The notes below the pieces were generated by a model. The model saw nothing but the letters and a program-made list of their open reading frames with translations, ran no database searches and had not been told where the DNA came from. This document shows, piece by piece, positions 6,452 through 50,890 of a DNA stretch of 52,492 nt. This DNA comes from a virus. Both the position numbers and the translations under genes were made by a program. The stretch lies in the IMG/VR virus record IMGVR_UViG_3300042922_000373, positions 1 through 52,492 of that record; one strand, written 5' to 3'. Position 1 is the stretch's first letter, and each line of letters starts with the position of its first letter.

Positions 6452-6985
6452 TCAGGCGATGCGCGTGGTCCCGGCGAGCGGGATGTGTGCGTAGTCCTGC
6501 TCCAGGTCGTCCTCCTGGATGGTGATGTACACCTTCTTGAGGTAGGCCGCGAAGCCCTGGTTCCCGCCGAAGTCGTAGTACGACGCGTTGATGATCAGGT
6601 CGATCTTGACGATGTCGGACTGGTCCACGATGAACGCGGTGTCCCGGCTGAGCAGCGTCCGGACCTCGCCCGTCACCAGCTGGATCTGGGGCGCCTTGGA
6701 CTCGTACTCGAAGTTGACCTTGACGTCGAGGAACGGACGGGGGACGAAGTTCTCGACCTCCTCGACCGACGCTTCACGCCACGGCTTGGTCTCCTTGACG
6801 TTCCAGCCGGCGTCGGCCATGTCACGAGCGACGTCCTCGGGAAGCATGAGTCGGAACCCACGGCTGCTCTCGCCTGCCGGCTTGAAGCGCGTCGCACGAC
6901 CCTCGAAGTTGATGTACTGGAGCTCGGCGTTGCGGACGGTGACGTCGGCGGGGGTGTCGGGCTGGTTGGGGTTACGGGGTGCCAT
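6452..6985 (-). CDS. probable single-stranded DNA-binding protein
   Basis: A 177-aa protein with the look of a phage family usually annotated as ssDNA-binding: an N-terminal MAPRNPNQPD tail, a strand-rich core (VTVRNAELQYINFEGR, FRLMLPEDVARDM), and a C-terminal KKVYITIQEDDLEQDYAHIP. Such proteins coat template DNA and help recombination. Start ATG 6985 was chosen over the frame's earlier ATG because CAAGGAGAAAACTG directly precedes it. Its place in the operon downstream of the polymerase gene supports a replication role. The family call is from recall, not from a search. Confidence 0.6.
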   Translation of the reverse strand: MAPRNPNQPDTPADVTVRNAELQYINFEGRATRFKPAGESSRGFRLMLPEDVARDMADAGWNVKETKPWREASVEEVENFVPRPFLDVKVNFEYESKAPQIQLVTGEVRTLLSRDTAFIVDQSDIVKIDLIINASYYDFGGNQGFAAYLKKVYITIQEDDLEQDYAHIPLAGTTRIA

Positions 6986-7358
6986 CAGTTTTCTCCTTGT
7001 TGTTGATGTAGTTCCGCATGTCTGCGGCGAATACCTTTGCGGCATCCAGGTTGGGATCGGGCGTCATTTGGAACCCGATCGAGTGGTCGTTGATGATGTG
7101 AAAGCCCATCGCTTCGAACACGTCGCGGTCGATCCTCATCGAGATCCCGCCCTTGTTGTCTATGATGGTGCTCTCACCGATCTGATGCCATTCACCGTCA
7201 CGCATCTGCATGAGCGGTACGACATCCCCGACATTGGTGATTTCCGCACCCTCGGGTATTACGGGGAGGCAGTTCCCTCTAAGGGAACCATCGGCCTGGA
7301 CTACTTCTCCGCAATCCAGGCCGCGGTCCTCTGCTGGTCCGTGATTATGAACCGTCAT
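6972..7358 (-). CDS. hypothetical protein in replication block (128 aa)
   Basis: I do not recognise this protein. The N-terminus has His and Cys residues (NHGPAEDRGLDCGEVV) but no clear paired motif. The middle is a mixed strand/helix region (ITNVGDVVPLMQMRDGEWHQIG), and the C-terminus is helical. Start ATG 7358 overlaps the preceding gene by 14 nt, and its own end overlaps the SSB-like gene by 14 nt, so the three are likely translated as a unit. Confidence 0.7.
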   Translation of the reverse strand: MTVHNHGPAEDRGLDCGEVVQADGSLRGNCLPVIPEGAEITNVGDVVPLMQMRDGEWHQIGESTIIDNKGGISMRIDRDVFEAMGFHIINDHSIGFQMTPDPNLDAAKVFAADMRNYINNKEKTDGTP

Positions 7359-8075: not shown

Positions 8076-11000
8076 TTAACTGGCGAACGCCTCGAAATCA
8101 CCGTACTGGCTGATCTTATCGATGGCCTTATCGACGAGCTTCTGGTAGTAGCTCTTGTCGACGTCTTTCTCCTTGCCGAGCTCCTTGATGGACTCCGACT
8201 CCAACCAATGGTAACCGGTGGTGCCCGTCACAGCAGCGAACTTGCCCGGTCCTGACTCCCGCATGAGGAGTCCACCACCCTTTACCACGGGAGTGAACAG
8301 ACCGGTCTTGCCGACGAACACCTTGGTGTCGTCATTACCCAGTGCCATCGGCGTGTCCTCGACACCCTCGAAGTCGAGCCAGAGGGGTGTGCGAGCACTC
8401 TTTGCCTCACACATATCCTTGAACTGGATCGCCTCCTTTGTGAAGAGCGTCTTCTTGACGAACGGGTGAGCGAACTGTGCCCCCGTTGCCGACCACGTTC
8501 CGATGAGCTTCGGCTTCGTGGCGTGCCAGCCGTACTTCGCGATGTAGACCGCGTCGTTGACCAAACACATCTTCTCGTAGGTGGCCTCGTGCACGAACTT
8601 GTACCCGAATGCGGCACCATATTCCATGACGAACTGGATGATCTCCGGAGATGCGTCCGGGATCTTGATGGAGTCCGTCTTGACATGCACTACCGGGAAT
8701 CCACGCGCCTCAACCTCGTACATCAGGTCGAGCATGAACAGCGCACCGATCTTGGCGACGATGTTGTCGATGTTGCGCGGGTCACGGAAGACATTGTCGA
8801 AGGATGCTGCCGTCAGACCGTAGACGATGTTGATCACGATCTTCAGAGCGTAGGAAAGCGCCTCAGCGATCTCCTCATCCGTCAGGAACTCGGCCAGCTT
8901 GCCGCCAAACATCTTCCGAGCATCGTCGAACCGCTTCTCCTTGATAGCCACACGAGCGGCCTTGAGGGTAGAGAAGTTCTCTGTGTACTCGCCGAACATG
9001 TCCATGATCTCGATCGACGTGGGATGCATCGACTCGATATCCAGCAGGACCACGTTCTCCCACATGCCTGGCTTGGCACGCACGAGTCCGCCTTCACCGA
9101 TTTCCTCGCCGCGGTATCGAGACACCATGGCTTTCTTCTCGGGGTCGTAGGCGTAGGTGTAGCCCTCGAACCTCTCAGAGAGATCCGGGATGTTGAACTG
9201 CGACTGCGGAGCACGGTTCGATCCGAAGATGATCCGAGCCGCGTGCTGCTGGGTACTCGAGTTGACCGAGAGTCCAGACAGTTCCGCAATGATCTGCCGT
9301 GCGATGAAGTCTCCCTTGAGGTGCAGGAAGACCACGTCCGTGGCGTTGGTATCGTCGATGCAGTACTCGACGACCTTCGCCCAGAGCTCCTTCGGAACCG
9401 GCTGGTCCCAGGGAAGTCCCAGTTCGTTGTGCTTGATCTCGAGCTCGATCTCCCACTTCTTCAGCGTCTGCTTCTTAGACGCGAAGTCGAAGATATCCGT
9501 GTACGAGAGGTTGTAGGCCTCACGGAACTTGGCATTGGGCGAGTTGTTGATCAGGGCCTGGCTGAGCTTGTAGAGCTCCTCGATCGTCCATCCGAGAGCG
9601 GCGGCGTAGATGATGTGGTTGTCGTAGCCACGGTTGTTGAAGCCGATGAGCTTGAGCGACAGAAGTGCTTCCACCTCTTGCGCCGACGGGTTGACCATCG
9701 CCGTCACCTGCTCCGACCCACTGTACTTCCAGCAGATCACGAACAGGTTGGGGAAGACCTCCACATCGAAAATAACCGGCTTCTCCTCATCGGGGAGGTT
9801 CGGCCGACCTTCTTCGTCACGGTCTTCGCTCTTGAACTTCATCGTCTGCATCAAGATGAGACACGCGTCCTTCTGGTGCGTGCTCTTCAGTGCAAACTGC
9901 ATGACCTTACCGCGCATATCCGTTACGTCATACTCGACACCCGAGTTGTAGGCCTCGAGGAGAACGTGGTGGATGAAGTCCATGTTCGGCTTGGTTGCGT
10001 CGTGCACTTCCTTACGCAGTGCTTTGGCGATGGTCCGGCGAAGGCTCTGCTCCGTGACTACTATGTTTGGATCGATCACTGTCTTCTCTTTGAGCTTCAG
10101 GCCACTGCTGATTGTGGCGACGGGTGTGTTGTTACAGCGGGAAAGTCTCCTTCTAAGGCTAGTGTCACCGGTGTAGACTTTAACCTCGACTCCAACATCA
10201 TGGAGACGGCTAAGCTCTTCAACGGCTCCGTCATAATTGTAATGGAGATGCACCCCATTACCGCTTTTACTGTACTCCGCGTAGGTTGGGGGCCAGTTTG
10301 CCGCGGCCTGTAGGGAACGCTCCAGGGATTTGTTTCCATCGTCATCCGTAATGTCAAAGTCAATGACGATGTGATTCGCCGGGACCTTGACGTAGTGCTC
10401 CTTCGCAGTGTCCAAGTCGGACAACACGGTGCTGACGACTTGATCGGGGCGGGGAGTGAACTCCTTACCCGTCACACGGTCGGTTCTTGGCGCAGACGAC
10501 CAGTACTTATTGGGCTGGCTCTCACCCAGCTTGTTGATCCTGGAATACTGCGCCGGAGCGGATGCGAACAGCTTGTCGAAGAGCGATTCCGTTTCGGTGA
10601 GCTCGAGAGTGAATCCGCCGGCGTTGACCTGCGTCACATTCTCGGGCACTGGCTTCTTGTACTTCGTCGCGTTGAAACCCGAGTACCAGTTACGGACTCT
10701 GGCGTCATTGACGACTGCTCGCTCCTCCCAGTTATCGAAGTAGTTCTTCAGTTCTTCACGGAACTTGTGGTAGGGCATGTCCCACTTGGTGCGGGTGAAG
10801 TCCAGCCACTCCTTCCAAAGCTCCCAAGCCTGCTTCAGGGTTGCCCCGTCCTGCTGCTCGAAAATATCGAAGTGGTACTCCACGTAGTTGAAGAACACGT
10901 CGGTCTGCATCATCATGTCGATGGGGACGTAGCTGTTGTAGTAGTCCTTCCCCATCTCCTGGAAGACCTGCAGACAGTGATGTGCGAGAGCTCCCAACTC

Positions 11001-11942
11001 GAAGCGGACCTGCTTGACCAGCTTCTCGTACTTACGGGCGGTGTGGAGATTACCCGTGGGTCGCACATCGAGAATACGTCGAACCAGACCCGACTTGGCA
11101 TCGGTGATACGAACCGGCTTGTTCGTACCTACGAAGGTCATAGCCACGGGCCTGATCTCGTACTGGCTCTTATGCTTCTCGTTGATGATGATCTTGTCGT
11201 GGGAGATCAGCTTGTTCAGCTTGCTGTTGTCGACGACCTTGCTCAGGTCACCATCCTGATCGATGGCAACGAGGCTGTTGTCCTTGAACTTAGCCAACGC
11301 GAACTGGTTGTTAGCGCTGACGATGTCCGCCACCTCGAAGGTCGTTGTGTAACCCTCGAAGAGGTCCTCGATAATATCGAGAATCGTCGACTTTCCCTCA
11401 CCAGGCTTACCGAAGAACACTAGGCCCTTGTGGATATACCTGGACTCGCCGGAGATGATCGCGCCGATTGCCCATTCGAACTTCGCCCGCTCCTCCGGGG
11501 AATACAGCAGGTCCACGAGTTCTTCGTAGGCGCTGATGTCCCCCGGAGCGAGAGAATATGGAAGCCGGTGAGTGGCCCGGTCCTCCTTCTTGACTTCCGT
11601 GTTGGCGAACACAACCTTTTGATCGAGATCCTCGGGTGTGTCAGGAAGTGTGGTGCAGAAGAGACGGAACTGCTGCCAGGTATTGCTACCGAAGCTACGC
11701 AGATACCGCCGGTTTACTTCTACGGCGAGGGTTTGCAACTGGTAGTCACGAATATCCTTGTCGATCAGTCGAGCTACGTCGAGCTCATTCGTCGACCACA
11801 GACCCTTCGCTTCGTCCCAAACTGCGTAGAACTTCCCTCCTCGGATCATCAGATCCTTTGATGTGTCGACCTGGTAGTCGGGGAATACGTCTAGTACGCC
11901 CTTCCTATGGCCTTCCTTCTCGCGAATCTGATAGAAATCCAC
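8076..11942 (-). CDS. fused SF3 helicase - AEP primase - family B DNA polymerase
   Basis: A 1288-aa protein that appears to join three replication enzymes. Residues about 150-310 form a D5/SF3-type helicase: Walker A GKPGEGKS (178-185), a Walker B-like VAIDQDGD (225-232) and sensor region FVGTNKP (270-276). Residues about 500-640 look like an archaeo-eukaryotic primase, with DFD (528-530) and the SGNGVHLHY block (560-568). Residues about 720-1200 are a family B polymerase. Exonuclease motifs are FDVEVFP (725-731), FNNRGYD (768-774) and YCIDDTNATD (860-869). Polymerase motifs are A, DIESMHPTSI (968-977); B, KIVINIVYG (1034-1042); and C, KTDS (1088-1091). The GTG start at 11942 follows GGAGGGAGG. 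Helicase before primase reverses the usual order. Confidence 0.88.
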   Translation of the reverse strand: MDFYQIREKEGHRKGVLDVFPDYQVDTSKDLMIRGGKFYAVWDEAKGLWSTNELDVARLIDKDIRDYQLQTLAVEVNRRYLRSFGSNTWQQFRLFCTTLPDTPEDLDQKVVFANTEVKKEDRATHRLPYSLAPGDISAYEELVDLLYSPEERAKFEWAIGAIISGESRYIHKGLVFFGKPGEGKSTILDIIEDLFEGYTTTFEVADIVSANNQFALAKFKDNSLVAIDQDGDLSKVVDNSKLNKLISHDKIIINEKHKSQYEIRPVAMTFVGTNKPVRITDAKSGLVRRILDVRPTGNLHTARKYEKLVKQVRFELGALAHHCLQVFQEMGKDYYNSYVPIDMMMQTDVFFNYVEYHFDIFEQQDGATLKQAWELWKEWLDFTRTKWDMPYHKFREELKNYFDNWEERAVVNDARVRNWYSGFNATKYKKPVPENVTQVNAGGFTLELTETESLFDKLFASAPAQYSRINKLGESQPNKYWSSAPRTDRVTGKEFTPRPDQVVSTVLSDLDTAKEHYVKVPANHIVIDFDITDDDGNKSLERSLQAAANWPPTYAEYSKSGNGVHLHYNYDGAVEELSRLHDVGVEVKVYTGDTSLRRRLSRCNNTPVATISSGLKLKEKTVIDPNIVVTEQSLRRTIAKALRKEVHDATKPNMDFIHHVLLEAYNSGVEYDVTDMRGKVMQFALKSTHQKDACLILMQTMKFKSEDRDEEGRPNLPDEEKPVIFDVEVFPNLFVICWKYSGSEQVTAMVNPSAQEVEALLSLKLIGFNNRGYDNHIIYAAALGWTIEELYKLSQALINNSPNAKFREAYNLSYTDIFDFASKKQTLKKWEIELEIKHNELGLPWDQPVPKELWAKVVEYCIDDTNATDVVFLHLKGDFIARQIIAELSGLSVNSSTQQHAARIIFGSNRAPQSQFNIPDLSERFEGYTYAYDPEKKAMVSRYRGEEIGEGGLVRAKPGMWENVVLLDIESMHPTSIEIMDMFGEYTENFSTLKAARVAIKEKRFDDARKMFGGKLAEFLTDEEIAEALSYALKIVINIVYGLTAASFDNVFRDPRNIDNIVAKIGALFMLDLMYEVEARGFPVVHVKTDSIKIPDASPEIIQFVMEYGAAFGYKFVHEATYEKMCLVNDAVYIAKYGWHATKPKLIGTWSATGAQFAHPFVKKTLFTKEAIQFKDMCEAKSARTPLWLDFEGVEDTPMALGNDDTKVFVGKTGLFTPVVKGGGLLMRESGPGKFAAVTGTTGYHWLESESIKELGKEKDVDKSYYQKLVDKAIDKISQYGDFEAFAS

Positions 11943-11963: not shown

Positions 11964-12521
11964 TTACACTCTTGGGCCATTGTTGACACGCAGTCCCTCG
12001 AGCAAATATGCCTCTTTCTGATACCAAATCTCAACACGACGCTGGTCACGATCTGCATCCCGCAAGGGGAACAGACCACCAACACCGTCTGGACCGTACG
12101 CCCGATCAAGGACCCGTTCAATTACATCGTCGATATCGTCCGCGATTGTGGCGTTGTACACGTTGTCTGAGTAACGCTGTAGCTCCAGATTCTCCATGAG
12201 TTTCCAGAACCAGTCACCCGTCTCACCGTATGACTCGAACGCTAGGTGCGCTGACAGCGCGATAAGCATCTCGAGGAGGGAGCAATCCAGATCCATCCAC
12301 CCGGGATCGATTCCTTCATGCCCCCACCTCTCGACGAACTCATCGCGCAGGCAGATCCCGTCTTCGGCTCGGTTGACGTCACGACGGACGACCACCCGGA
12401 ACCTCTTGACGTACAACTGCCTTGCTAGCGACCAATAGTTACGACGGCGGTTCTTCTGATTGACCGAACCTATGAGGCTGTACAACCACTCGAAGTACCG
12501 GTCGTCAGCCGTACCGTCCAT
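11964..12521 (-). CDS. hypothetical protein upstream of the polymerase (185 aa)
   Basis: A soluble protein rich in Trp, Arg and Asp (DWFWKLMENLELQRYSDNV). Proteins with a similar central helix occur in many actinobacterial phages, without known function. Start ATG 12521 has AAGGAGGGTTA upstream and touches the stop of the preceding gene. The gene ends 21 nt before the polymerase fusion start, so the two are probably cotranscribed. Confidence 0.75.
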   Translation of the reverse strand: MDGTADDRYFEWLYSLIGSVNQKNRRRNYWSLARQLYVKRFRVVVRRDVNRAEDGICLRDEFVERWGHEGIDPGWMDLDCSLLEMLIALSAHLAFESYGETGDWFWKLMENLELQRYSDNVYNATIADDIDDVIERVLDRAYGPDGVGGLFPLRDADRDQRRVEIWYQKEAYLLEGLRVNNGPRV

Positions 12522-13387
12522 TAACCCTCCTTGTTTGCCTTACGCTTGACGCGCCGCTGGCGCTCGAATCCATCATCTTCGTCGGGGTCCAGGTTCAGAC
12601 CACGGGATGCTGCGTACCCCTCCTCGATCCGAATGACCTCGAAGGCGAGTCCCAGCTTCTCGTTGCGGATGTAGACGATGTCCTCATCCTCGGACAGGTG
12701 CCCGAATCGCAGGTTCTCGAGCGTTCCGATGAGCTCCTCCGGGTGGAGAACGATCTCTTCCTTGCTGTTGAGAAGCGTGTTGTCACCGACGAACCACTTG
12801 ATTGTCGGCTGGTCGTACGCGTCGTACGGCTCATCCGGCGCAGCCCACTCGTGGATCGAGACGATGTACGGGCGCTTGGGATCCCGTGGCTCACCGTCCG
12901 GACCTTCCGGGATTGCCTGGTCAAAGAGCGAGTGCTCCTTTACCCGGGACTTCTTGCTGGTCTTCGCCTCGACGTGGATATCCACCGCGGTCTCGAGATC
13001 GACACCCTCATCCTCGGCGACACCGATGATGTGCTGTGCTCCCTCGTATCCCTGGTCGGCGATCCGCTTGGCGAGCTTACGGAGCTCCGCCTGACGTTCC
13101 TGCTCGGGCTTGTTGAACTCCGGGTTGAACTCGTCGAAGTCCTCACCCTCGTAGTCGTTGTTCGCCTGCAGATCGGTTTCGTCGATGTTGACCAGGTTCT
13201 CGGGGTCGGCGAGTTCGCCTTCCTTACGGACGATGCGGTAGTGCTCCTTGACGGAAGCCACCTGTTCGTCCGCGATTGCCTGCCAGTTCTTGCTCACCAC
13301 ACTCCGCGTGATGAAGAAGGTGACGACACTACCCACTAGTGCGCCACCCCCGAATGCTGCAAGCAGCTTCGGATCGATAAGGTTCAT
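12521..13387 (-). CDS. membrane-anchored acidic protein (288 aa)
   Basis: One N-terminal membrane segment (LLAAFGGGALVGSVVTFFITRSVV, residues 8-31) is followed by a long hydrophilic region very rich in Asp/Glu and then a folded domain (PYIVSIHEWAAPDEPYDAYDQPTIKWFVGDN ... EVIRIEEGY) and a basic tail. The order suggests a membrane tether with the bulk in the cytoplasm. ATG 13387 has AAGGAGAAACAG upstream. I do not recognise a catalytic motif. Similar tethered proteins are common in actinophage early regions. Confidence 0.75.
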   Translation of the reverse strand: MNLIDPKLLAAFGGGALVGSVVTFFITRSVVSKNWQAIADEQVASVKEHYRIVRKEGELADPENLVNIDETDLQANNDYEGEDFDEFNPEFNKPEQERQAELRKLAKRIADQGYEGAQHIIGVAEDEGVDLETAVDIHVEAKTSKKSRVKEHSLFDQAIPEGPDGEPRDPKRPYIVSIHEWAAPDEPYDAYDQPTIKWFVGDNTLLNSKEEIVLHPEELIGTLENLRFGHLSEDEDIVYIRNEKLGLAFEVIRIEEGYAASRGLNLDPDEDDGFERQRRVKRKANKEG

Positions 13388-13900: not shown

Positions 13901-13970
13901 TTTCTGTCTGCTTTCTCTTGGTGTTCTTGATCTTGTGGACGATCTTGCGCTGGCGGCTCTTAGCTGTCAC
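13830..13970 (-). CDS. very small basic protein (46 aa), uncertain
   Basis: From GTG 13970 (MTAKSRQRKIVHKIKNTKRK) this frame covers the otherwise empty gap between the membrane protein and the next gene, then overlaps the latter by 71 nt. The first 26 residues are strongly basic and look like a nucleic-acid-binding peptide. The rest may be a chance open frame. The ribosome binding site is modest. Confidence 0.4.
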   Translation of the reverse strand: MTAKSRQRKIVHKIKNTKRKQTESERSIPQPGSSKRQATDAGSDHD

Positions 13971-14910
13971 CCTTGGTGATCCCCTCGAAGGAGGTCTGTC
14001 GCTGGCCGATACCGATGAAGTCCTGGATGAACCCATCGATGTTGAAGTCGAGGATGACGTGCGGCTCGTAGCCGTTGACGAAATCCCGTGCCGCGGGGCT
14101 CTCCAGGTCGAAGATGCCGAAGTCGACGTAGTCGTCTCCACCCGCACCGAGAACCCAGCCGGTCACAGCGCCATCCGGCGTCTCCGGGAGTCCCAGAGCG
14201 TCATAGACGTCGTTCAGTACGAGCCACCCCTTCGAGTGGAGGCGCTCCGTGGCGAACTTCTGCTGACCGAGCAGGAACGTCAGGTTGCCCTCACGCCAGT
14301 GCTTGTTGAAGTTCACGTTGCTCTCGTCGAAGATCTTCGCGTACTTCGAGTAGCGGTTCGGGTCGGACTTCTTGATGACCCGCTCCTCCCCCGTCTCGAA
14401 GTCGATGACCGTCTCCTCACGCAGACCGAGACGGTAGTCCCGATCCTTGTCAGCACCCTGGTCGTCGATGACGTTCTGGCGGTAGTTGTCGTACTGCGAC
14501 TTGATGACGTTGTACGCCGCGACAGCAGCCACGTTCCGCTTCTTGAGCGTCCAGGACGCACCCACGAGGCAGGCCAGCGAAGTGCCGAGCACCAGTCCAC
14601 CGGGGACGTAGAGCTTGAACACATCGACAGCGCGCTTGGTGTAGATGCGCGTCAGGTCGATCTTGTACTGCTCCTCGCTGTACTCCCCGAGCTTCTTGAG
14701 CTCCTTGGCGGCGTCGATCTCCTCCTCGTGCTTGTCGAGAACGGGCTCGAGCTTGAGCGTTGCACGGGCGATCATCACCGCAGCCGTGATCACGCCGGCG
14801 ACACCCACGACCGTGAGCACCTCCGGACTGTACTTCTTGCCCAGGAGGAGTGCCCTCCCGAACTTCTGACCTGCCACGAGCTTCGCGGCGTCCAGGTTGA
14901 ACAGAGTCAT
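13960..14910 (-). CDS. two-segment membrane protein, DUF6353-like (316 aa)
   Basis: Two membrane segments are visible (VLTVVGVAGVITAAVMIARATL, about 31-52; LYVPGGLVLGTSLACLVGASW, about 99-120), separated by a charged helical stretch. They are followed by a long soluble domain ending in strand-rich sequence (DYVDFGIFDLESPAARDFVNGYEPHVILDFNIDGFIQDF). It shares layout with the protein at 19321-20118, so the phage carries two paralogues. From recall the family resembles DUF6353, which is phage-specific and of unknown role. Start ATG 14910 has CAAGGAGAACTAAG upstream. Confidence 0.8.
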   Translation of the reverse strand: MTLFNLDAAKLVAGQKFGRALLLGKKYSPEVLTVVGVAGVITAAVMIARATLKLEPVLDKHEEEIDAAKELKKLGEYSEEQYKIDLTRIYTKRAVDVFKLYVPGGLVLGTSLACLVGASWTLKKRNVAAVAAYNVIKSQYDNYRQNVIDDQGADKDRDYRLGLREETVIDFETGEERVIKKSDPNRYSKYAKIFDESNVNFNKHWREGNLTFLLGQQKFATERLHSKGWLVLNDVYDALGLPETPDGAVTGWVLGAGGDDYVDFGIFDLESPAARDFVNGYEPHVILDFNIDGFIQDFIGIGQRQTSFEGITKGDS

Positions 14911-19167: not shown

Positions 19168-19388
19168 GTGTTCTTGTCCTTCTCGAATGGATAGCACGCA
19201 TAAGGATATCCGTGGTACACGAACACGGCGTCCTTATAGCGTTTGGGGATGAGTTGCTCGTAAGGTTCGATCTCCAACCCACATGCCGAGCAATATATGG
19301 GTATCAGCGCGATCGGGTAATCAGCGAAAGGAGTAGTAATCCTGTTTCGGAGGCTTCTGAAACGTAACCCCCATGACAGGACTCGCAT
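19164..19388 (-). CDS. small CxxC protein, start unresolved
   Basis: The last 49 residues, from about IPIYCSACGLEIEPYEQLIPKRY, look like a genuine small zinc-binding protein (CSAC plus a later Cys and His). The formal ATG at 19388 would overlap the upstream gene by 68 nt and add a poor-looking N-terminus. The only codons close to the gene boundary are CTG or ATA. The end is firm; the start is not. Confidence 0.55.
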   Translation of the reverse strand: MRVLSWGLRFRSLRNRITTPFADYPIALIPIYCSACGLEIEPYEQLIPKRYKDAVFVYHGYPYACYPFEKDKNT

Positions 19389-20118
19389 CCCTCGCTGACG
19401 TGTAGAAGTAGGACACGTCGAGCTTGTGGTCGAGGTTCCAACCGAAGTCGTCACCCATCGGCACGTTCCCCAGCCCGATCATGTCGTAGAACATGTTCAG
19501 GGAGGCGTAGTTGTTGTTGTTGATCTCGGCGTTGATCGCGTTGACGGCGGCGTCGACGATGTTCTGGTTGCCCCAGAAATATCGGTCTGTCCAGACATCG
19601 AGGCACTCGACCATCTTCTCGTCGAGACGCCGGGAGTCCGAGAGGAGATTGCGGTCATCCATCGGGTCGCGGTTTGCAACACGATCGCGGATGATCTCCT
19701 CTTCGATCTTGGCGTACTTCGAGTCACCCTGAAGCTCCCGAGTCTTGTCCCGCCACTCCGTCAAAGCCCTGTCGGAGAGGGTGTAAAGGCTCAGTAGAGC
19801 CGCCTTCTGCTTTGTGTTGATCGATTGTGCAGAGATGACACAGCCGATAGTGACCAAGCCGGCAGACAGGGGTGGTACGAAATGCAGCCAAGTCAGCTGG
19901 ACCTTCTCTTTGGCGGTGAGCGGAGTGCCCGGGTCGTTCGGATCGTTGACGTACCGCCGCTCCTCCTCGGCAAGGATGTCGTCATGGGCTCGGATTGCTG
20001 CCCTGGCCGACAGGATCCCGGTGAAGACCACCCCAGCCACCCCAGCGGCCGTGAGGATAGCCGACGAATTCTGAACGATCTTCTGGCTCAGAGTGGACGT
20101 GATGCTAGCGAATGTCAT
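19321..20118 (-). CDS. two-segment membrane protein, DUF6353-like (265 aa)
   Basis: Two membrane segments (AILTAAGVAGVVFTGILSARAAI, about 20-42; LTWLHFVPPLSAGLVTIGCVIS, about 75-96), then a long soluble region (KYAKIEEEIIRDRVANRDPMDDRN ... NIVDAAVNAINAEINNNNYASLNMFYDMIG). The plan and many short blocks match the protein at 13960-14910, so the two genes are paralogues about 5 kb apart. The C-terminus bears YFYTSARDAS. ATG 20118 overlaps the small membrane gene upstream by 14 nt. Function unknown. Confidence 0.8.
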   Translation of the reverse strand: MTFASITSTLSQKIVQNSSAILTAAGVAGVVFTGILSARAAIRAHDDILAEEERRYVNDPNDPGTPLTAKEKVQLTWLHFVPPLSAGLVTIGCVISAQSINTKQKAALLSLYTLSDRALTEWRDKTRELQGDSKYAKIEEEIIRDRVANRDPMDDRNLLSDSRRLDEKMVECLDVWTDRYFWGNQNIVDAAVNAINAEINNNNYASLNMFYDMIGLGNVPMGDDFGWNLDHKLDVSYFYTSARDASPVMGVTFQKPPKQDYYSFR

Positions 20119-37744: not shown

Positions 37745-39895
37745 TCAGACCGTGAAGACCCACGCGGTCGTGGTGTTCGACGCGAGGTAGTAGCCGGGCT
37801 CTGCGTGAGCCGTGACCTCGGTCGGGCCATCGATGACGACGTCACCGGTCGCCTCGACACCGTCGACACGGTACTCCACGCCGGTCGAAACCGGGATGGT
37901 GATCGTGTCAGTCGCGCCGTCGAAGGACGGAGCCTGCGCCGTGGCCAGGGTACCCTGGTTGCGGGTGAGCACGAGCGCCGACTTCGGACGCGTGAGCGCA
38001 CCGGAGAGGCGGGTCTCCAGGAGGTACTTGTTCTGGTTGAAGTCCAGATCGAAGTCCTCGAAGAAGTTGAGCTCGCCGCCCTTGTTCGTGCCGAGCGAGT
38101 AGTCGATCAGGTTGACGACGATGCCCAGGACGGTCGGAGCCGCCTCGAGGACCTCGACAGCCACGATCTCCTTGACGCGGAGCTTGTCAGCCAGCTGACG
38201 CTCGGTGTCGTAGAGGAAGCGGCCCATCTTGTCCTTGAGCAGGAGCACGTCGGAGATGATCGCGTCGGTCGTGTACAGGGTCGGGGAGCCCGAGCCACGG
38301 TACTGCGAACGGAGACGGATCCACTCCTCCACGATGGTGTCCGGAGCGACGTTGGCGGGGAGCTCCTTCTTGACCACGTACAGGGCGTGGTCGTTGAGGA
38401 TGGAGCGGATGCCGATGCCGTCGATCTGACCCGCAGGGTCCTTGATCTTGTCGGTGTCACCCGTGGCCGGACGGCCGTCGCCGATGAGGATCGCGCGAGC
38501 GAGTTCCTCGTTGAGCATGAAGCGGATCTCCCACTTGATCCACGCGATGACGTCGAAGTCCGTGATGTCGATGATGTCATCGCGGTCGAGACGCTGCTTC
38601 TTGTAGATCGTGGTGGGGGACGTGGTGCGCTGCAGCAGCTGCAGGACCTCGTCCTTCTTCTCGTTGCCCTTGATGTAACCCTTGGCACGAGCCTCGTCGG
38701 CGGTGAGGTCGGCGACGATCGACTTGACCTTGGCCCACGGCTGACGCTTGACGGCGTCGAGGACCTTGGGGACCCACTCCGCCTGGCGAGCCAGCAGCTG
38801 GGGGCTGGAGTCGAGGTTCCGAGCTTCGGGGAAGAGGAGCTCGATGTTGTCGATGCCGTACGTGCCGGCGTGCTTGAGGATGGCGCCCTCGAGATCCTTC
38901 ATCTCGAATGCGTCTTCCATGATCTTCCGCATCCCGTCGTGCGAGATGAACGGCTTGGTTGCGACGGCGGTGCCGCCCTTGTTGGCTGCGTCTTCGAACG
39001 CGTTGTGATCGGTCACGTTGGAACCTCCAATGTTGTCGTGTGCGATGGATTCGTCGGTGCTGGTCGAGTCCGCATCGGCGGAATCGTCAGTGGTGTCACC
39101 GTCGGAGTTGGTGTCTTCGGCGTCGACAGTGGCGTCGGCGTCGGTGTCGGTCTCGTCGGCGTCCGCATCAGCGGAGTCCGCGTTGGTGTCGTCGGAGTCA
39201 GCGTCGGCATCGGCATCGGTGATGGACGAGTGCTCAACCGAGTCCTCGTCGTCCGTAGCAGCCTTACCCGCTTCCTTGCCCGCGATGAACGACTCGTTCA
39301 CCATGTGGGCGATGATGGCCTGATCCTTCGGGTCCAGACGATTGAAGCGGTCTTCGACCGTCTCGTCGCTGTCCGAATCGGCATCGGCATCCTCGTCCGC
39401 ATCGGTGCCGTCGTGAACGATGAACTCACCCGGGAACCGGATGAAGGCCTCGTCCATTTCGGTGACCGAATCGTCACTGTGACGGATGTAAACCTGCTCG
39501 ATCTCAGCGCCGTTGTTGGCACCACCGATCACGAGGCTGACTTCCTTCATGTCACCGTGGAAGATCTGGTTGCTGGTCCCCCGCTTGTCGAGCTCGTTTG
39601 CCCAGACAGACAGCATGCTGATGTCGCCGTTCTCCAGCTGCATCTTGGCTGCCTTGGCCTTGGTCGTCTGGTTGAAGAAACCATGGACGTAAGGCCCCTG
39701 AGCTCGGTGCTCGATGATGACGTGCCCAAGGACCTGTTCGGCGTCCTTGTGGTTGTGCATCCACACCAGGGGGATCTTCTTCTTGTCCTGATGTTCGAAT
39801 GCGCCGTGCTGGATGGTGTTACCGTCCAGACACACTACGCCATACTTGCTGGCCCAGCCGCTGAAATCAGGAGTTCGCGAATTGTCGTCTCCCAT
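37745..39895 (-). CDS. fused prohead protease and HK97-type major capsid protein
   Basis: A 716-aa polyprotein. Residues about 1-165 are an HK97-type maturation protease (YGVVCLDGNTIQHGAFEHQ; VWMHNHKDAEQVLGHV with the catalytic His; GDISMLSVWAN with the likely Ser). Residues about 170-310 are extremely Asp-rich and could act as scaffold (delta-domain) material. Residues about 315-650 are the capsid fold (RNLDSSPQLLARQAEWV; DITDFDVIAWIKWEIRFMLNEELARAILIGDG). The last about 65 residues are an Ig-like domain also found on the tube protein. ATG 39895 follows AAGGAGAGCTTCAAA. Fusion of protease, scaffold and capsid in one gene is uncommon. Confidence 0.88.
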   Translation of the reverse strand: MGDDNSRTPDFSGWASKYGVVCLDGNTIQHGAFEHQDKKKIPLVWMHNHKDAEQVLGHVIIEHRAQGPYVHGFFNQTTKAKAAKMQLENGDISMLSVWANELDKRGTSNQIFHGDMKEVSLVIGGANNGAEIEQVYIRHSDDSVTEMDEAFIRFPGEFIVHDGTDADEDADADSDSDETVEDRFNRLDPKDQAIIAHMVNESFIAGKEAGKAATDDEDSVEHSSITDADADADSDDTNADSADADADETDTDADATVDAEDTNSDGDTTDDSADADSTSTDESIAHDNIGGSNVTDHNAFEDAANKGGTAVATKPFISHDGMRKIMEDAFEMKDLEGAILKHAGTYGIDNIELLFPEARNLDSSPQLLARQAEWVPKVLDAVKRQPWAKVKSIVADLTADEARAKGYIKGNEKKDEVLQLLQRTTSPTTIYKKQRLDRDDIIDITDFDVIAWIKWEIRFMLNEELARAILIGDGRPATGDTDKIKDPAGQIDGIGIRSILNDHALYVVKKELPANVAPDTIVEEWIRLRSQYRGSGSPTLYTTDAIISDVLLLKDKMGRFLYDTERQLADKLRVKEIVAVEVLEAAPTVLGIVVNLIDYSLGTNKGGELNFFEDFDLDFNQNKYLLETRLSGALTRPKSALVLTRNQGTLATAQAPSFDGATDTITIPVSTGVEYRVDGVEATGDVVIDGPTEVTAHAEPGYYLASNTTTAWVFTV

Positions 39896-48064: not shown

Positions 48065-50890
48065 TTAGCCGTTGACATAGTCGTGGAGGGTACTGGTAGG
48101 TACGCCCAGCATGGCTGCCACATCAGCGTAGTCATAGCCCCTAGCTAGGAGGGACTTGGCTCGCGTTACCTTGGCGGGGGCGATGGCCTTGACCTCGCGT
48201 GGTGTGGCCAGCTGCTTGACCTGATCCAGGTCGGCGTTGTCCAAGATGCTCTTCAGCATGTTGTTAGTAACAGCGCCTGCCTGTACAGCACTCCATTCCT
48301 TATCAGTGATCTGAATGGCCGGCTTCTTGGCTCCCATGCGGGCACGGGCTTCATTCAGGGCGGCGGACTTAATCTTCTTGATGCCGTCCTTATCCAGATC
48401 CGGGTTTGCTTCGATCCTGGCCTTAACCAGGGTACCTGCTAGAATCTGGGCCTGCCGTTCACGAGGGGCGTTTCTCTGCGCGAGATCCAGCTTCTCAGCG
48501 AGACTCTTAACTTCAGGCGCATAGGCCTTGGCTGCAGAGGGGTTCCTCTTGATGGAGGGGGTCTCAATTGTCGACTTGCGAGCAGAGTCCCCTAGTGCCT
48601 TGAGCTTGTTGGCGTGATCTGCATAGACGTGCTCCATGAGAGTACCGCCATCACGAGACAGCAGTTCACGGGCGTCATTGGCTTCGAACATCTTGGTGGA
48701 CTTACCCTGTGACCAAGGCTTGTCTACAACTTCGCCATTCTTCTTGGTGATCTGCTCACCAGTGTACTCCCAGACGCGCTTCCCTGTAGCAGGGTCAATA
48801 CGCATCTTGCGGTCTGCAGGACGGGCCTCAGACTTAGCACGAGAAATGAGAGTTGCGGCACCACGAGTAGCGCCACCCTGATAGGTCTTCTTGAGCTCCG
48901 CAATACCGTTCTGTTTCGCAGACGTACGGAAATCAAGCGAATGCTTTTCAGCATCGATGACAACCATGGAATGACGCACTGCACGAGCGAGCTCCGAATT
49001 CGGCGCACCCTGAATGGTCATGTCTGTGATCAGATTGGAGATGTCACCCATCTTCAGCTGCTTAGCCTGCTTGTTAGGCGACTTGGGCTTGCCGGTTTTG
49101 GGGTCGATCGGGAAAACGGGCTTTCCGAGTTTGGCGTCCCACGTTCCACCGTCGATGGTCTTCATTCCGTCAAAAGGCGGATGTGCCCTCTGAGGATCGA
49201 ATCCCTTGAGCCCTTGCAGAGGAGGTGCAGACTTCACACGACCCTTGCCAGATTCAGGATTCGGAATGACCAGAACCGTGTCACCATCGAAGTCGGCACC
49301 TGAAAGGCGACCGGCAACATTGGCGTTGATTCCAACAGCGTCCTTTGCCTGTTTGATGAGGCGGTTCGCTTCACGGTTACGGTTGTTCACAACGAGTTCG
49401 GGAATCTCGAACGTACCACCATGCGGATGACGAATCAGAACGACTCGCTCACCGTTGTTGTAGTTCGGGGCGTAGATCTCGTTGTCCTTCAGACTGTTAA
49501 TCGGAAGGATGACATGGTTTGCAGTTCTCGGCAGACCAGCGGCCTTCAAGTGGTTTGCAGCGGAATCGATGCCATCAGCGTACGACTCCAGGAGCTTCTT
49601 CTTGATAACCGGGTTTGTCAGGGAGTTGATCTCGTCGAGTTCGGCCTTTTTGCGATCGTACGCAAGCGACAGCTGCTCGCGGGCCAGATCGGGCGACTGC
49701 TTTGACAGGAACTGAGACGAAAGCGACTTGGACCACTTGGACCAGCCACCTTCTTCACCAGAATAGGAGATGTCGTTTCCGTCATCATCCTTCTTCACAG
49801 ATCCGACGATGTTAAGCGGCGACTGATGCTGCTTTCCGTCTTTTCCGGGATAGTTGATCTGGCGAACGATCGATCCGAACGGAAGCTCGGTGTCTTCACC
49901 GGTATTCGCGTCCTTCTTGATCGGCTTCATAGCCTTGAGCTTGTCGCCCGTGTTCGTCTTGTTCGTGTTGAAGATCATGTCATAGCCGTCCGGCACATCG
50001 TCCGAATACATGGCCATGCCCTTGAGGTAGTGATCGTTTCCGACCTTGATACGCACCTGGGCGTACCGTGAGCTACCGAGGGACAGATCGTCGACTCCAC
50101 GACGAAGCTCGATGACACCGTCCTTCTGATCTCCGCCATCTTCCGCATAACGGACAGCCACTCGAGAGGGCTTTACCGCAACGGGAGGCTTGACGTCGAG
50201 ATAGGTACGGCCACCGTCTTCGCTGTAGGTCGCGATCGACTTGATCTTCTCAGGGTGGTTGATGACATCGGGGAACCGCGTTCCAGGAGGGGCGAGCACC
50301 TTGGTGGTGGTGTTCTTTCCCGTTCCCAGCTGGTTGACAGGCACATAGAAGACTTCGTAGCCCTCGTCCTTGAGCATGGCAACCGACACAGCGAGCTTTT
50401 CAGGGCTCACACCGAGGTGGTTACCCGTTCCCTTACCGATGTCGAGGAATCCGCCGGACTTCTCCATGTTGTCCTTCAGAGTTCCCGCGGTTGCCAACAG
50501 AATGGCTTCCTTGGTGTCCTCGGAGGGCTTCAGGAGTGCACGGATGGACGACTCGTTGCGACCCATGATCTCACCGATGGCGACGTTCGAGTTTCCGGCG
50601 TCCTTGAGTCGGACAGCGCGGGCTCGGTCTTCAGCATCGATGCGGGCCTTGGCGATCGTCTTTGCATTGCGGAGATCCGTAGTCGTGAACTTGACCTCGT
50701 CGGTCGAGAAAGCGCGTGCGATCTCAACAGGCGAGAAGCCCTTGTCTTCGAGGTCCTTGATGTGGGCGAGCATGTCCTTACCGCGCTGGTAGGGAGTCTC
50801 ACCCGAACCCCAAGGATAGCGTCCCGACTTGCGGAGGACGCCATAGTGAGCGAGAAACTCATCGTGGTCCACATCACTGTCGAAAATCAC
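48065..50890 (-). CDS. YonO/crAss-gp66-type RNA polymerase, tagged N-terminus (941 aa)
   Basis: The key motif is GRLSGADFDGDTVLVIP, with DFDGD at 533-537, the metal-binding loop of two-barrel RNA polymerases. A partner strand block lies at about 481-498 (ERVVLIRHPHGGTFEIPE). Residues 9-40 carry a tag (HDEFLAHYGVLRKSGRYPWG). Helix-turn-helix units lie at about 51-77 and 93-120 (VRLKDAGNSNVAIGEIMGRNE) and at the C-terminus (LLARGYDYADVAAMLGVPTSTLHDYV). GTG 50890 follows GGAGGATGCCCT and overlaps the upstream stop. Such enzymes copy DNA into RNA without host subunits. Its targets are not known. Confidence 0.75.
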   Translation of the reverse strand: MIFDSDVDHDEFLAHYGVLRKSGRYPWGSGETPYQRGKDMLAHIKDLEDKGFSPVEIARAFSTDEVKFTTTDLRNAKTIAKARIDAEDRARAVRLKDAGNSNVAIGEIMGRNESSIRALLKPSEDTKEAILLATAGTLKDNMEKSGGFLDIGKGTGNHLGVSPEKLAVSVAMLKDEGYEVFYVPVNQLGTGKNTTTKVLAPPGTRFPDVINHPEKIKSIATYSEDGGRTYLDVKPPVAVKPSRVAVRYAEDGGDQKDGVIELRRGVDDLSLGSSRYAQVRIKVGNDHYLKGMAMYSDDVPDGYDMIFNTNKTNTGDKLKAMKPIKKDANTGEDTELPFGSIVRQINYPGKDGKQHQSPLNIVGSVKKDDDGNDISYSGEEGGWSKWSKSLSSQFLSKQSPDLAREQLSLAYDRKKAELDEINSLTNPVIKKKLLESYADGIDSAANHLKAAGLPRTANHVILPINSLKDNEIYAPNYNNGERVVLIRHPHGGTFEIPELVVNNRNREANRLIKQAKDAVGINANVAGRLSGADFDGDTVLVIPNPESGKGRVKSAPPLQGLKGFDPQRAHPPFDGMKTIDGGTWDAKLGKPVFPIDPKTGKPKSPNKQAKQLKMGDISNLITDMTIQGAPNSELARAVRHSMVVIDAEKHSLDFRTSAKQNGIAELKKTYQGGATRGAATLISRAKSEARPADRKMRIDPATGKRVWEYTGEQITKKNGEVVDKPWSQGKSTKMFEANDARELLSRDGGTLMEHVYADHANKLKALGDSARKSTIETPSIKRNPSAAKAYAPEVKSLAEKLDLAQRNAPRERQAQILAGTLVKARIEANPDLDKDGIKKIKSAALNEARARMGAKKPAIQITDKEWSAVQAGAVTNNMLKSILDNADLDQVKQLATPREVKAIAPAKVTRAKSLLARGYDYADVAAMLGVPTSTLHDYVNG

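What the first reader, a model, noticed from the sequence alone, without database searches (positions are those of the whole stretch)
8076..11942. Helicase, primase and DNA polymerase fused in one 1288-aa protein
A single frame shows ordered motifs of an SF3 helicase (Walker A 178-185, TNKP sensor), an AEP-type primase (DFD 528-530, SGNGVHLHY) and a family B polymerase with its exonuclease (exo I-III; motifs A, B, C). Helicase-primase and primase-polymerase fusions are known, but all three together, with the helicase in front of the primase, would be rare. It would make most of a replisome in one chain.
Basis: partly seen in the sequence, partly recalled or inferred. Interest (0 to 1): 0.9.

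Follow-up and report, generated by a model that had tools for sequence, protein, structure and literature searches.

The report
Phage helicase-primase-polymerase fusion (HelPrimPolB)
This phage gene encodes one protein that can probably unwind DNA, make primers and copy DNA by itself, but the same kind of protein is common in phages and a relative was already purified and tested in 2025, so it is a new member of a known family.

Summary
A single uninterrupted 1288-aa frame (8076-11942, minus strand, GTG start behind a strong ribosome-binding site) carries an SF3/D5-type helicase (about 1-430), an archaeo-eukaryotic primase core (about 445-620), a four-helix domain (631-699) and a family B polymerase with proofreading exonuclease (about 720-1288). 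All catalytic motifs are intact and conserved in about 170 homologues. The novelty claim fails. The protein matches PHROG 4210 end to end, 252 sequenced phage records hold at least 80% of it in one place, and IMG/VR holds over 500 relatives. The architecture was named HelPrimPolB in 2020. GP55 of lactococcal phage 1706, 37% identical over the whole length, was purified in 2025 and shown to have helicase (UTP/dTTP-driven), RNA primase, polymerase and 3'-5' exonuclease activities. The seven GP55 residues from the mutational work that I traced (K189, D509, Y655, F667, D712, E714, D949) are identical here. It is therefore a new, actinophage-branch member of a known kind. Small leads remain: an invariant His at the expected polymerase sugar-gate position, a Lys for the first motif C Asp, and an unknown 185-aa gene directly upstream in 154 of 160 loci with enough flank.

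The parts
8076..11942 (-). HelPrimPolB replicase, 1288 aa
   Evidence: single ORF, PHROG 4210 full length, 37% identical to GP55 of phage 1706 over the whole length
10653..11942 (-). residues 1-430: SF3 (D5-type AAA+) helicase module; Walker A K184, Walker B D230/D232, sensor-1 N274, arginines R288/R289
   Evidence: Pfam DUF5906 E 2.5e-15; predicted structure matches SaPI5 primase-helicase Z 22.2 and poxvirus D5/E5 Z about 19 over model residues 7-428; motifs 96-100% conserved
10083..10610 (-). residues 445-620: AEP (PriS-like) primase core; DFD 528-530, SGNGVHLHY 560-568, E586-K588
   Evidence: PHROG primase families E 6e-6 to 7e-5, Pfam Prim-Pol sub-threshold, D530 aligns with GP55 D509, high-confidence model
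9846..10052 (-). residues 631-699: four-helix domain equivalent to GP55 aHD; Y671 and F683
   Evidence: Helices 631-642, 650-667, 674-685, 691-699 in the model; Y671/F683 align with GP55 Y655/F667, whose mutation abolishes priming
8079..9785 (-). residues 720-1288: family B DNA polymerase with 3'-5' exonuclease; D726, E728, D774, D864 (exo); D968, K1034, Y1041, D1090 (pol)
   Evidence: Structure match to KOD, Pol alpha and Pol II polymerases, Z 14-16; profile match to E. coli Pol II E 4e-7; residues conserved
11964..12521 (-). 185-aa gene of unknown function (PHROG 4678) directly upstream
   Evidence: A homologue lies upstream on the same strand in 154 of 160 loci with at least 620 bases of upstream sequence
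6452..7045 (-). phage ssDNA-binding protein, probable SSB partner
   Evidence: Pfam Phage_ssDNA_bind E 6e-40; PHROG 4787

Best explanation
It is the replicative enzyme of a tailed phage related to actinobacteriophages and a homologue, by full-length collinearity an orthologue, of GP55 of lactococcal phage 1706 (HelPrimPolB group). Most likely mechanism, inferred from GP55: the N-terminal SF3 module dimerises the protein and unwinds duplex DNA, probably using UTP/dTTP. The AEP core together with the four-helix domain lays short RNA primers. The C-terminal PolB domain extends them with proofreading and with strand displacement driven by the helicase. The phage also encodes an ssDNA-binding protein, and I found no separate phage primase or DNA polymerase gene among the larger ORFs scanned. 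Shown here: intact frame, domain order, folds of the helicase and polymerase, conserved catalytic residues. Inferred: all enzymatic activities, nucleotide preference and dimer.
For: Full-length PHROG 4210 match, 1853 bits. 252 phage records with at least 80% coverage in one place, and phage 1706 at 36.6% identity over 100%. All seven GP55 residues traced from the mutational work are identical in the window protein: K184, D530, Y671, F683, D726, E728, D968. Confident models, mean pLDDT 90 and 91, matching D5-type primase-helicases (Z 22) and family B polymerases (Z 16). Primase families match the middle segment. Published activities of GP55. SSB-like gene in the window.
Against: No activity was tested for this protein or, as far as I found, for any actinophage member. 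The AEP fold was not matched on its own to a solved structure, because the polymerase and helicase filled the structure lists, and the AEP profile found no primase in the PDB; Pfam Prim-Pol stays below its cut-off. Motif C lacks its first Asp (KTDS), although active GP55 shares this.
Confidence: 0.95

Rival explanations
1. The primase domain is a degenerate remnant, and priming is done by the host DnaG or a phage RNA polymerase; the protein is only a helicase-polymerase.
For: Weak similarity to curated primase models (Pfam Prim-Pol 15 bits, below cut-off); the phage encodes its own large RNA polymerase-like protein (48065-50890).
Against: AEP residues D528, D530, H565, E586, K588 are invariant in 171 proteins, and Y671/F683 of the accessory domain are kept; GP55 with the same residues makes RNA primers, and D509A kills priming.
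Confidence: 0.04
2. The single frame is an assembly or frameshift artefact that joins separate replication genes.
For: None found beyond the unusual length.
Against: Hundreds of independent phage genomes and metagenome contigs hold the same fusion as one ORF, mostly at 45-58% identity.
Confidence: 0.005
3. It is a novel three-in-one fusion that arose independently of GP55.
For: Only 37% identity to GP55, and a different branch of the tree.
Against: Collinear alignment over all four domains with shared catalytic and accessory residues points to one common ancestor that already had the fusion.
Confidence: 0.005

Closest known systems
GP55 of Lactococcus phage 1706 (four-in-one replicase; PMC12205980)
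   Same: Same domain order, same length class (1317 aa), 37% identity over the full length, the seven traced mutated residues identical
   Different: Different host group and branch; the GP55 locus lacks a recognisable 185-aa upstream gene; NTP preference and priming site of this member unknown
HelPrimPolB group of family B polymerases (PMC7544198)
   Same: SF3 helicase and PrimPol domains N-terminal to a divergent PolB with unusual motif C and KxY regions
   Different: No architectural difference found
Actinobacteriophage 'DNA primase/polymerase' (PHROG 4210), e.g. Microbacterium phage DizzyRudy gp53
   Same: 57% identity over the full length; nearest phage relative in the tree
   Different: Sequence divergence only
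AEP-SF3 primase-helicases (SaPI5 primase-helicase, poxvirus D5, NrS-1 PrimPol)
   Same: Helicase fold (Z 17-22) and AEP motifs; one PHROG family (1829) matches both segments
   Different: There the AEP precedes the helicase and no PolB is attached; here the helicase precedes the AEP and a PolB follows

Membership tests
HelPrimPolB / GP55-type replicase | SF3 helicase domain at the N terminus with Walker A/B, sensor 1 and arginine residues | tested here: met
   DUF5906 E 2.5e-15, structure Z 22, conserved residues
HelPrimPolB / GP55-type replicase | AEP (PriS-like) domain after the helicase with motifs A, B and C | tested here: met
   D528/D530, H565, E586/K588 invariant; PHROG primase matches; confident model
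HelPrimPolB / GP55-type replicase | AEP fold confirmed by match of this domain alone to a solved primase structure | tested here: inconclusive
   Structure lists were filled by helicase and polymerase chains; sequence profile of the segment found no primase in the PDB
HelPrimPolB / GP55-type replicase | Accessory four-helix aHD domain with essential Tyr and Phe | tested here: met
   Four helices 631-699; Y671, F683 align with GP55 Y655, F667
HelPrimPolB / GP55-type replicase | C-terminal family B polymerase with exo I-III and divergent motif C | tested here: met
   Z 14-16 to PolB structures; exo and pol residues conserved, KTDS motif C
HelPrimPolB / GP55-type replicase | UTP/dTTP-dependent helicase, RNA primase, polymerase and exonuclease activities; dimer | not testable with these tools
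   Shown for GP55 only
AEP-SF3 primase-helicase (D5/NrS-1 type) | AEP domain N-terminal to the SF3 helicase, no PolB | tested here: not met
   Order is helicase, AEP, PolB

The most novel reading that the evidence does not exclude
The 185-aa upstream protein and the next gene upstream (288 aa, usually with a hydrophobic N-terminal stretch) form a conserved cassette with the replicase and could be dedicated, possibly membrane-attached, replisome partners; and the invariant His at the PolB sugar-gate position could relax ribose discrimination so that the polymerase tolerates ribonucleotides.
Probability: 0.12. Interest if true: 0.45.

Novelty: new member of a known kind. Interest (0 to 1): 0.2.

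Why it matters
A one-protein replisome core is a striking design and useful for DNA amplification tools, but that was established with GP55. This member adds an actinophage-type homologue with the studied residues conserved, and points to a conserved neighbouring gene and two unusual polymerase active-site positions, of which the His is not discussed in the text of the two papers consulted.

Tried and rejected
Frameshift or assembly artefact: rejected. Split gene in Streptomyces phage Scarif: not split, the upstream 147-aa ORF is a partial helicase paralogue. Plasmid-borne relatives: none found. A profile of the primase segment against PDB sequences gave only lactococcin immunity proteins at E 0.1-0.4, taken as chance. 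The 2016 survey by Kazlauskas et al., which I take to be the source that PMC7544198 credits for the domain fusion, was not held. A paper search for a histidine sugar gate in family B polymerases gave nothing on the point.

Full report
What is there. The ORF at 8076-11942 on the minus strand is one open frame of 1288 aa with a GTG start, preceded by AGGAGGGAGG a few bases upstream. The window is an IMG/VR virus record of 52,492 bases with terminase, portal, protease and tape-measure genes, so this is a tailed phage genome. PHROG 4210, annotated DNA polymerase, covers residues 1-1287 at 1853 bits; separate PHROG polymerase, primase and helicase families match the expected thirds.

How common it is. 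tblastn found 395 phage records, 252 with at least 80% of the query in one place: mainly Arthrobacter, Gordonia and Streptomyces phages, with Microbacterium, Curtobacterium and Rhodococcus phages, where it is usually annotated DNA primase/polymerase, and also Lactococcus phages 1706 and P162. No plasmid record matched. In a FastTree tree of 177 proteins the window groups with Microbacterium phage DizzyRudy (support 0.945), far from GP55.

What is known. The 2020 survey of family B polymerases named the group HelPrimPolB for its domain order (PMC7544198). Zhang et al. 2025 (PMC12205980) purified GP55 of phage 1706 and showed UTP/dTTP-dependent unwinding, RNA priming (strong site 5'-CCAAC-3', GTP start), DNA synthesis and 3'-5' exonuclease, with an essential new helical domain (aHD) after the primase core, and found mainly a dimer. 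They report over 1000 homologues. The window protein aligns with GP55 end to end at 37% identity. GP55 residues K189, D509, Y655, F667, D712, E714 and D949, whose mutation is described there, correspond to identical residues K184, D530, Y671, F683, D726, E728 and D968 here.

Conservation and structure. In 171 aligned proteins the key helicase, primase, exonuclease and polymerase residues are kept at about 96-100%; the main variation is Y671 of the helical domain (Tyr in 160, Phe in 11). AlphaFold models built from alignments of IMG/VR relatives have mean pLDDT 90.2 (residues 1-712) and 91.4 (residues 440-1288). The first matches SaPI5 primase-helicase (Z 22.2, 369 residues, rmsd 4.4), poxvirus D5/E5 (Z about 19) and NrS-1 (Z 18) over residues 7-428. 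The second matches archaeal, Pol alpha and Pol II family B polymerases (Z 14-16), and a sequence profile agrees (E. coli Pol II, E 4e-7). The four helices at 631-699 fit the described aHD. The AEP core is confidently modelled and matched by several PHROG primase families (E 6e-6, 7e-5), but was not matched on its own to a solved primase; its assignment rests on motifs, those profiles and homology to GP55.

Most likely function. By homology, unwinding, RNA priming and proofreading DNA synthesis in one chain, working with the phage ssDNA-binding protein encoded at 6452-7045. The activities are inferred, not shown, for this member. I scanned the larger ORFs of the window, not all of them, so a small extra replication gene could have been missed.

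Leads. First, the position expected to be the family B sugar gate (Tyr in SLYP; general knowledge of the polymerase family) is His in all 171 proteins (H973), while three stand-alone phage relatives have Tyr; the first Asp of motif C is Lys here and Asn in those relatives. The GP55 paper's text does not discuss this, and the 2020 paper's text notes that motif C and KxY diverge in this group. Second, homologues of the 185-aa gene (11964-12521) lie upstream on the same strand in 154 of 160 loci with enough flank, but none was detected near GP55 itself; the loci were chosen as best matches to the family, which favours this branch.

Verdict. Observation confirmed; the unusual-fusion reading is right in anatomy but not new. 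New member of a known, biochemically characterised kind.

Noticed in passing
11964-12521 (-): 185-aa gene of unknown function (PHROG 4678) upstream of the replicase in 154 of 160 related loci with enough flank, across phages and gut-bacterial contigs.
   Followed up: partly
12521-13387 (-): 288-aa gene with a hydrophobic N-terminus (PHROG 4695) next upstream; relatives in 141 loci, 74 of 95 complete ones with a hydrophobic stretch near the N-terminus.
   Followed up: partly
48065-50890 (-): 941-aa protein matching PHROG 4291 'RNA-dependent RNA polymerase' over its full length (1206 bits) with an HTH near the N-terminus; possibly a YonO-like single-chain phage RNA polymerase, not tested further.
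   Followed up: no
8076-11942 (-), residues 973 and 1088: Invariant His at the expected sugar-gate position of PolB motif A and invariant Lys in place of the first motif C Asp in all 171 family members; three stand-alone phage PolB relatives have Tyr and Asn.
   Followed up: partly
L002:2983-3426: Streptomyces phage Scarif carries a separate 147-aa partial SF3 helicase paralogue upstream of its intact replicase, annotated 'DNA polymerase'.
   Followed up: partly
13960-14910 and 19321-20118 (-): Two paralogous proteins of PHROG 2152 in the same genome, the first also matching Pfam DUF6353, function unknown.
   Followed up: no
39076-39169 (+): tRNA-Thr predicted inside and opposite to the head maturation protease gene, probably spurious.
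   Followed up: no
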